Assembly (NCBI RefSeq): GCF_027622855.1
Contig: NZ_JAPZVR010000004.1
Location: 128,021-192,020 of the forward strand
From: Glycomyces algeriensis
Lineage (GTDB): Bacteria; Actinomycetota; Actinomycetes; Mycobacteriales; Micromonosporaceae
Direction of reading: 5' to 3'
Length of the DNA stretch: 64,000 nt
Numbering within the stretch: the first letter of the stretch is position 1; each line of letters starts with the position of its first letter. Below, in pieces: positions 3,799 through 4,920 of the stretch. Position numbers and translations under genes: made by a program. The notes below the pieces were generated by a model, which saw nothing but the letters and a program-made list of their open reading frames with translations, was not told the origin of the DNA and ran no database searches.

Positions 3799-4920
<1,122 letters not shown>

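What the first reader, a model, noticed from the sequence alone, without database searches (positions are those of the whole stretch)
4295..4320. Release factor 2 with SKY instead of SPF in the codon-recognition motif
RF2 discriminates stop codons through the tripeptide SPF; this protein has S204-K205-Y206 in an otherwise typical context ([13 protein letters not shown]) and an intact GGQ. UGA is used as stop by many genes in the window, so the factor must still read it. A Phe to Tyr and Pro to Lys change at this site could alter UGA/UAA/UAG discrimination or be a lineage feature.
Basis: partly seen in the sequence, partly recalled or inferred. Interest (0 to 1): 0.7.

Follow-up and report, generated by a model that had tools for sequence, protein, structure and literature searches.

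The report
Remodelled stop-codon reader in Glycomyces RF2
The UGA-reading release factor of this soil bacterium has a rebuilt stop-codon-reading site (SKY instead of the textbook SPF), and the same rebuild seems to have arisen independently in distant relatives, so the textbook motif is not the only workable one.

Summary
The window, a Glycomyces genome, encodes one RF2 (prfB) whose recognition tripeptide is S204-K205-Y206. It is no sequencing error: 22 of 22 genomes of the genus in a family sample carry it. It is a lineage feature, but not a trivial one. S[K/Q/A]Y needs four changes on a tree built without the motif columns; a single clade is rejected (p-AU 3.4e-6). The large groups are Glycomyces and relatives, and Trebonia with Streptosporangiales MAGs. 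Between these and SPF relatives five columns change convergently: 138, 146, 200, 205, 206. All lie in the two stop-codon-reading elements; 81 control clade pairs put 1 of 92 columns there. Partial states suggest an order. UGA remains a stop: it ends 77 of 152 genes called, and coding signal collapses after it. RF1 tripeptides and the rRNA segments searched look normal. Most likely: a standard-specificity RF2 with a rebuilt reading head. Higher UAG use in SKY genomes hints at altered UGA efficiency, but weakly.

The parts
3799..4920 (-). prfB, peptide chain release factor 2, 373 aa, GTG start, TAG stop; the only prfB over the cut-off in the genome
   Evidence: TIGR00020 458.5 bits, cut-off 370; one hit over the cut-off in G000; Pfam PCRF + RF-1
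4303..4311 (-). recognition tripeptide S204-K205-Y206 (AGC AAG TAC) in place of SPF
   Evidence: pattern hits
4321..4323 (-). V200 in strand beta4; Leu in 84 of 85 SPF rows, Met or Val in 47 of 47 S[KQA]Y rows
   Evidence: strand 196-203 in the model
4507..4509 (-). A138, directly after G134-A135-G136-G137 at the tip of helix alpha5; Val or Ile in 85 of 85 SPF rows, Ala in 44 of 44 SKY rows
   Evidence: helix 140-157 in the model
4483..4485 (-). Q146 in helix alpha5; Met in 75 of 85 SPF rows (Q in 6, K in 3, R in 1); Q, N or G in 47 of 47 S[KQA]Y rows
4165..4173 (-). catalytic G250-G251-Q252, intact
   Evidence: invariant in alignment A1
2870..3550 (-). ftsE, next gene on the same strand (226 aa, TAA stop): usual locus context of prfB
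108..617 (-). smpB-like gene further downstream, ending in TGA, so it would need RF2 to terminate (named by eye)
   Evidence: sequence; not searched against a library

Best explanation
This is the ordinary, orthologous prfB of Glycomyces, the only one over the cut-off in the genome. It makes an RF2 that still reads UGA and UAA but with a remodelled reading head. Ser204 (from recall, the residue that touches codon base 2) is kept. The middle residue changed from Pro to Lys and the third from Phe to Tyr. This went together with Leu200 to Val/Met in strand beta4, Met146 to Gln/Asn/Gly in helix alpha5, and Val138 to Ala beside the glycines at the alpha5 tip. The five sites most likely form one packing network that holds the codon-reading loop against the alpha5 tip: once 146 and 200 have changed, the loop tolerates loss of the proline and takes a Tyr. 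SHOWN: the residues, their fixation in clades, separate origins, the concentration of convergent columns in the reading head, the partial states, UGA still used as stop. INFERRED: that the sites touch each other, that specificity is unchanged, and that the order was about 146 -> 200 -> 206/205(Q or A) -> 205K with 138A.
For: One prfB over the cut-off in the genome; SKY matches in 22 of 22 genomes of the genus and 30 of 240 of the family and 33 of 297 in Trebonia's family. Tree of 78 rows without the motif columns: 4 changes, all forced by starred branches, 4-4 in the 5-95% bootstrap range, 0% of 200 with one; one clade rejected, p-AU 3.4e-6. Five convergent columns between the two whole clades, all in the reading head; 81 control clade pairs gave 92 columns, 1 in the head. 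Among 176 distinct RF2 sequences 67 of 67 S[KQA]Y have Met/Val at 200, while 105 of 106 SPF have Leu. Partial states and single-base codon steps P(CCG)-Q(CAG)-K(AAG). TGA ends 77 of 152 genes and coding score falls from +0.145 before to -0.204 after it. ftsE follows prfB on the same strand in 30 of 36 Glycomyces-type loci (no ftsE seen in 6) and 28 of 38 other S[KQA]Y loci (8 without, 2 otherwise). Model: alpha5 140-157, beta4 196-203, beta5 212-223. Reading by the alpha5 tip and the beta4-beta5 loop: PMC3418547 (passages); E. [quoted passage not shown]
Against: No release assay. The independent-pairs test of 200 against 205 has only 4 pairs (median p 0.125). Columns 138 and 146 do not change alike in all four origins: the SAY and SQY singles of Trebonia's family keep V138. 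In one search, with sub-clades instead of the whole Glycomyces-type clade, 146 drops out of the convergent list and 99 (once also 1), outside the head, enters; the other 39 of 44 SKY-SKY pairs there, which leave SKY rows in the background, give columns that are mostly elsewhere (such as 73 or 167), and none of 138, 200, 205, 206. Control pairs overlap and are not independent. Counts of changes cannot tell gain from loss. Higher UAG use in SKY genomes could mean that UGA reading is not standard. The model is of middling quality (pLDDT 75, under 50 at 206-208), so contacts are not shown.
Confidence: 0.78

Rival explanations
1. The SKY head is a specificity or efficiency change: it reads UGA less well (or UAA relatively better), and the genomes have shifted their stop codons from UGA toward UAG in response.
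For: TAG/(TAG+TGA) is 0.22-0.41 in 6 SKY genomes and 0.11-0.30 in 6 SPF genomes (Mann-Whitney p 0.026; pooled without G405, 144 TAG and 297 TGA against 91 and 388, Fisher p 2.5e-6, genes treated as independent); G000 has 0.41 at 70% GC. prfB itself ends in TGA in 4 of 35 Glycomyces-type and 6 of 35 other S[KQA]Y rows but 47 of 107 SPF rows. Tyr, if placed like the RF1 Thr that contacts bases 1 and 2 (PMC3418547, passages), could add a contact.
Against: The genomes are phylogenetically grouped, and SPF relatives near the Glycomyces group (G441 0.23, G453 0.30) overlap with SKY ones (G396 0.22, G631 0.29). UGA is still the commonest stop in 5 of 6 SKY genomes (in the 59% GC genome G405 UAA is slightly ahead). 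ftsE ends in TGA in 17 of 26 Trebonia-type rows. Release-factor biology may not drive stop usage (PMC8789281, abstract).
Confidence: 0.2
2. Neutral drift: the middle and third residues are loosely constrained in Actinobacteria and SKY has no consequence.
For: The middle residue of the RF1 tripeptide is variable (PVT, PAT, PET, PKT, PTT). SPY, SAY and SQY exist. RF1/RF2 with mutations in the tripeptide can be functional in vivo (PMC3974865, passages).
Against: SKY, once reached, stays in two large clades; drift does not predict that the same further sites of the reading head change in both.
Confidence: 0.15
3. One ancestral SKY gene spread by horizontal transfer or was an old paralogue.
For: The same tripeptide in two distant groups; Phytomonospora endophytica has two SKY RF2 genes.
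Against: One clade rejected; the groups branch apart, each near SPF relatives; flanking residues (VEQGTHR against GEHGTHR/GEQGTHR) and serine codons (mostly AGC against mostly TCC) differ by group; prfB-ftsE order kept where seen, with 2 exceptions.
Confidence: 0.03
4. Sequencing or assembly error.
For: None.
Against: 22 of 22 genomes of the genus, named isolates.
Confidence: 0.005

Closest known systems
Bacterial RF2 (prfB, TIGR00020) with SPF
   Same: Full-length orthologue, usual locus, GGQ, Ser of the tripeptide, GAGG before helix alpha5
   Different: P205K and F206Y, with L200V/M, M146Q/N/G and V138A
RF2 with SPY, noted as SP(F/Y) in PMC1586002
   Same: Tyr at the third place; seen here in L224, L275 and one Bacteroidota genome (L428)
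   Different: Keeps Pro; L224 and L428 keep Leu200 (L275 has Met)
RFH (PrfH), with a conserved SXY motif (PMC1586002)
   Same: Ser-x-Tyr in the recognition loop
   Different: RFH lacks domain 1, has a three-residue gap in the loop, GP in place of GG, and pairs with rtcB; none of these was seen here
RF1 (PxT)
   Same: Variable, non-proline middle residue; Val at the place of residue 200
   Different: No PxT; scores far below the RF1 cut-offs
mtRF1 (mitochondria; PMC3418547)
   Same: A precedent for joint changes of the alpha5 tip and the recognition loop
   Different: mtRF1 has insertions (RT, GLS); an E. coli RF1 given its loop and alpha5 tip lost UAA and UAG release (as told in PMC3418547)

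Membership tests
prfB / RF2 orthologue (TIGR00020) | Score over the curated cut-off | tested here: met
   458.5 bits against 370
prfB / RF2 orthologue (TIGR00020) | GGQ catalytic motif | tested here: met
   G250-G251-Q252
prfB / RF2 orthologue (TIGR00020) | Single copy in the usual locus, nested among actinobacterial prfB | tested here: met
prfB / RF2 orthologue (TIGR00020) | Release on UGA and UAA, not UAG | not testable with these tools
   Indirect only: UGA is used as stop and no second RF2 was found
Canonical SPF/SPY-type RF2 reading head | Tripeptide S-P-F/Y | tested here: not met
   S-K-Y; so filed as an S-x-Y variant of RF2, not as a canonical SPF-type
RFH / PrfH | SXY motif | tested here: met
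   SKY
RFH / PrfH | Loss of domain 1, GP for GG, loop gap, rtcB partner; score over cut-off | tested here: not met
   N-terminal helices 3-119, GAGG 134-137, no loop gap against SPF rows, ftsE next door; 105.1 bits against cut-off 166.65
RF1 | PxT and score over cut-off | tested here: not met
   251.1 and 248 bits against 423.25 and 400

The most novel reading that the evidence does not exclude
The RF2 reading head has a second stable solution, S-[K/Q/A]-Y with a matching alpha5 and beta4, reached repeatedly by an ordered path. It reads the same codons by a different contact set (Tyr hydroxyl and Lys near codon or 30S head), with a changed UGA:UAA balance to which genome-wide stop usage responds.
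Probability: 0.3. Interest if true: 0.75.

Novelty: new variant of a known kind. Interest (0 to 1): 0.6.

Why it matters
SPF is taught as the RF2 'peptide anticodon'. A reviewer's comment printed in PMC1586002 (passage) says that Tyr never appeared in the reviewer's own extensive laboratory selection; here it is fixed in whole clades, with Lys in the middle, and arose repeatedly. The linked sites 138, 146 and 200 name residues outside the tripeptide that may set how the loop reads the codon, with natural intermediates to test in order. This makes the question 'what besides the tripeptide determines stop-codon reading' directly testable with natural sequences.

Tried and rejected
Sequencing error: rejected by 22 of 22 genomes of the genus. 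UGA reassignment or read-through as sense: rejected, coding score falls after TGA as after TAA and TAG. Compensation in RF1: tripeptide normal in 11 of 11 SKY genomes read (G000; L195-L204); the rest of RF1 was not compared. Compensation in rRNA: four 16S segments (530 loop, around C1054, 1400 and 1492 regions of helix 44) identical in 9 of 9 genomes with a 16S hit, and helix 69 in 11 of 11 with a 23S hit (16S not hit in 3 of 12, 23S in 1 of 12). The full-length 16S comparison was run with 1.5 kb flanks; it listed some columns that separate SKY/SQY from SPF rows, a few probably inside the 16S, none seen in the four segments; I did not interpret them. Horizontal transfer: rejected. RFH: rejected on domain content. 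Stop-codon usage: only suggestive. 20 of 80 stretches held no RF2: chance matches. From 19 of those 20 genomes (L126 left out), of other phyla, I read RF2: L200 and P205 in 19 of 19, 18 SPF and 1 SPY. tRNA scans of ten 20-kb stretches and the window gave two ordinary tRNAs and no suppressor, too little to count. Literature: none of the listings and passages I saw from ten searches of the open-licence library mentions a natural SKY, SQY or SAY RF2. The RF2-ribosome crystal papers were not held.

Full report
What is there. The ORF at 3799-4920 on the minus strand encodes a 373-residue RF2 (TIGR00020, 458.5 bits, cut-off 370). Its tripeptide is S204-K205-Y206, codons AGC AAG TAC at 4303-4311. It is the only prfB over the cut-off in the genome; the other two hits are RF1 and a short ArfB-like protein.

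Distribution. The SKY DNA pattern matches 30 of 240 family genomes, in 5 of 44 genera, and 22 of 22 in the genus. It matches 1 of 394 genomes of a class sample and 1 of 396 of a phylum sample, each time only the window's own genome. These samples missed the second SKY group, so they are not complete. The pattern also fixes the following DNQG, so variants in other contexts would be missed. A scan of genome contigs (84,980 species by its description) gave 80 stretches, probably a cap; 60 lie in an RF2, all of these from records titled as Actinomycetota or groups within it, and 20 hold no RF2. The second group is Trebonia and Streptosporangiales MAGs: 33 of 297 genomes in Trebonia's family match. 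In that family I read RF2 from 49 of the 80 genomes: two have SAY (L232, L240) and one SQY (L221). A relative of the Glycomyces group has SQY (L014).

Convergence. I collected 176 distinct RF2 sequences of at least 330 residues with a readable motif: 106 SPF, 63 SKY, 2 SAY, 2 SQY, 2 SPY, 1 SEF; shorter or identical ones were dropped. After thinning at 93% identity 135 remained. On a quick tree without the motif columns, S[KQA]Y needed 4 changes, 3 forced by starred branches. On a careful tree of 78 of these rows that I chose by hand (30 of them S[KQA]Y, the SEF paralogue left out) it needed 4, all forced, and 4-4 in the 5-95% bootstrap range. Holding the 30 together costs 140.9 log units, p-AU 3.4e-6. 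Such counts cannot tell gain from loss, but SPF or SPY is the state in 19 of 19 genomes of other phyla read.

A coupled network. I compared the Glycomyces-type clade (16 rows) and the Trebonia-type clade (29) with 85 SPF rows, column by column. Five columns met the criterion: 138 (V to A), 146 (M to Q, or N/G), 200 (L to V/M), 205 and 206. Residues 205 and 206 define the classes; 138, 146 and 200 do not. All lie in the two elements that read the codon, the tip of helix alpha5 and the loop between beta4 and beta5 (PMC3418547, passages). The predicted model agrees (alpha5 140-157, beta4 196-203, beta5 212-223), though its quality is moderate. As a control, 81 other pairs of separate clades gave 92 such columns, 1 of them in the reading head, taken as 134-150 and 196-215 (clades overlap between pairs, and the SEF row was left out). 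When sub-clades of the Glycomyces-type clade were paired with the 29 rows, 138, 200, 205 and 206 stayed, 146 dropped out and 99 entered, once also 1. The remaining 39 of 44 SKY-SKY pairs leave SKY rows in the background; they gave columns mostly elsewhere and none of 138, 200, 205 and 206.

An apparent path. States at 138/146/200/205/206 in the 135 rows: VMLPF 71, VQLPF 4, VQMPF 1, VMLPY 1, VQMQY 1, VQMAY 1, NQVQY 1, A[Q/N/G][M/V]KY 44; the other eleven rows are minor variants and the SEF paralogue. In 67 of 67 distinct S[KQA]Y sequences residue 200 is Met or Val; Leu stands in 105 of 106 SPF. Pro CCG to Gln CAG to Lys AAG, Phe TTC to Tyr TAC and Leu CTG to Met ATG or Val GTG are single-base steps, and these codons occur in the rows. 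The order is inferred. The independent-pairs test of 200 against the tripeptide has four pairs only and cannot reach significance.

Does it still read UGA? In G000, 77 of 152 genes called end in TGA, 54 in TAG, 21 in TAA. Mean coding score is +0.145 in the 30 codons before TGA and -0.204 after it, much as for the other stops and for an SPF genome. Within the window, the ORFs I read by eye as ftsX and smpB end in TGA. RF1 tripeptides are PVT (10) or PAT (1) in 11 of 11 SKY genomes read. The 16S decoding-site segments searched are identical in 9 of 9 genomes with a 16S hit (5 SPF, 3 SKY, 1 SQY), and helix 69 in 11 of 11 with a 23S hit (5 SPF, 4 SKY, 1 SQY, 1 SAY).

A hint of a cost. TAG/(TAG+TGA) is 0.22, 0.38, 0.29, 0.41, 0.35, 0.38 in six SKY genomes and 0.23, 0.30, 0.15, 0.11, 0.23, 0.12 in six SPF genomes (Mann-Whitney p 0.026; a looser gene threshold on eight of them gave a like picture). 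Genomes are not independent, gene calls come from my own simple caller on 100-264 kb per genome, and near SPF relatives overlap. The prfB gene itself ends in TGA in 4 of 35 Glycomyces-type, 6 of 35 other S[KQA]Y and 47 of 107 SPF rows; ftsE ends in TGA in 5 of 29, 17 of 26 and 16 of 21, so the second group does not avoid it there. A published analysis concludes that release-factor biology is unlikely to explain such trends fully (PMC8789281, abstract), while another reports a correlation with RF2 abundance (PMC4989110, passages).

Mechanism. In E. [quoted passage not shown] In RF1 the first base is held by backbone contacts at the alpha5 tip, and the Thr of PxT contacts bases 1 and 2 (PMC3418547, passages). 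By alignment, RF2 residue 206 corresponds to that Thr and residue 205 to the variable x of PxT, which is A, V, E, K or T in RF1s read here. Hence the Pro-to-Lys change hits what may be the least codon-specific place, while Phe-to-Tyr puts a hydroxyl near bases 1 and 2. The changes at 138, 146 and 200 most likely adjust packing so that the loop keeps its shape without proline. This is inference; no contact was measured.

Known or new. A 2006 paper writes the RF2 motif as SP(F/Y), describes SXY in RFH, and prints a reviewer's remark that Tyr never appeared in the reviewer's own selections (PMC1586002, passages). In the listings and passages of ten searches of the open-licence library I saw no report of a natural SKY, SQY or SAY RF2 (calls listed in Tried and rejected); subscription papers are largely not covered. 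I rate it a new variant of a known kind.

Noticed in passing
L238:4464-5783 (-), genome G664: A second, divergent RF2-like gene (439-aa ORF, about 48% identity to the window RF2, motif SEF, no GAGG, GGQ intact) beside a conjugal-transfer-type ATPase ORF and a DnaN-like ORF (named by eye), in a genome that also has a normal SPF RF2 (L237). It looks like an RF2 carried by a mobile element. A plasmid search found no place covering 80% of it; the two best-listed places were 49.4% and 44.3% identical.
   Followed up: partly
L058/L170 and L064/L120, Phytomonospora endophytica: Two SKY-type RF2 genes on different contigs of one genome.
   Followed up: no
L014:1501-2604 (-), genome G406: SQY with a further change just after it (DTQKRRQT for DNQGRRQT) and N138 in a relative of Glycomyces.
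   Followed up: partly
window 4282-4284 (Q213): The actinobacterial RF2s read, SPF and SKY alike, have Gln in R-R-Q-T where RF2 has His in 16 of 19 genomes of other phyla read (Gln in 1, Met in 2); recalled as the residue that stacks on the codon bases.
   Followed up: no
window 2870-3550 and orthologues: ftsE ends in TAA in 23 of 29 Glycomyces-type rows but in TGA in 16 of 21 SPF rows and 17 of 26 Trebonia-type rows.
   Followed up: no
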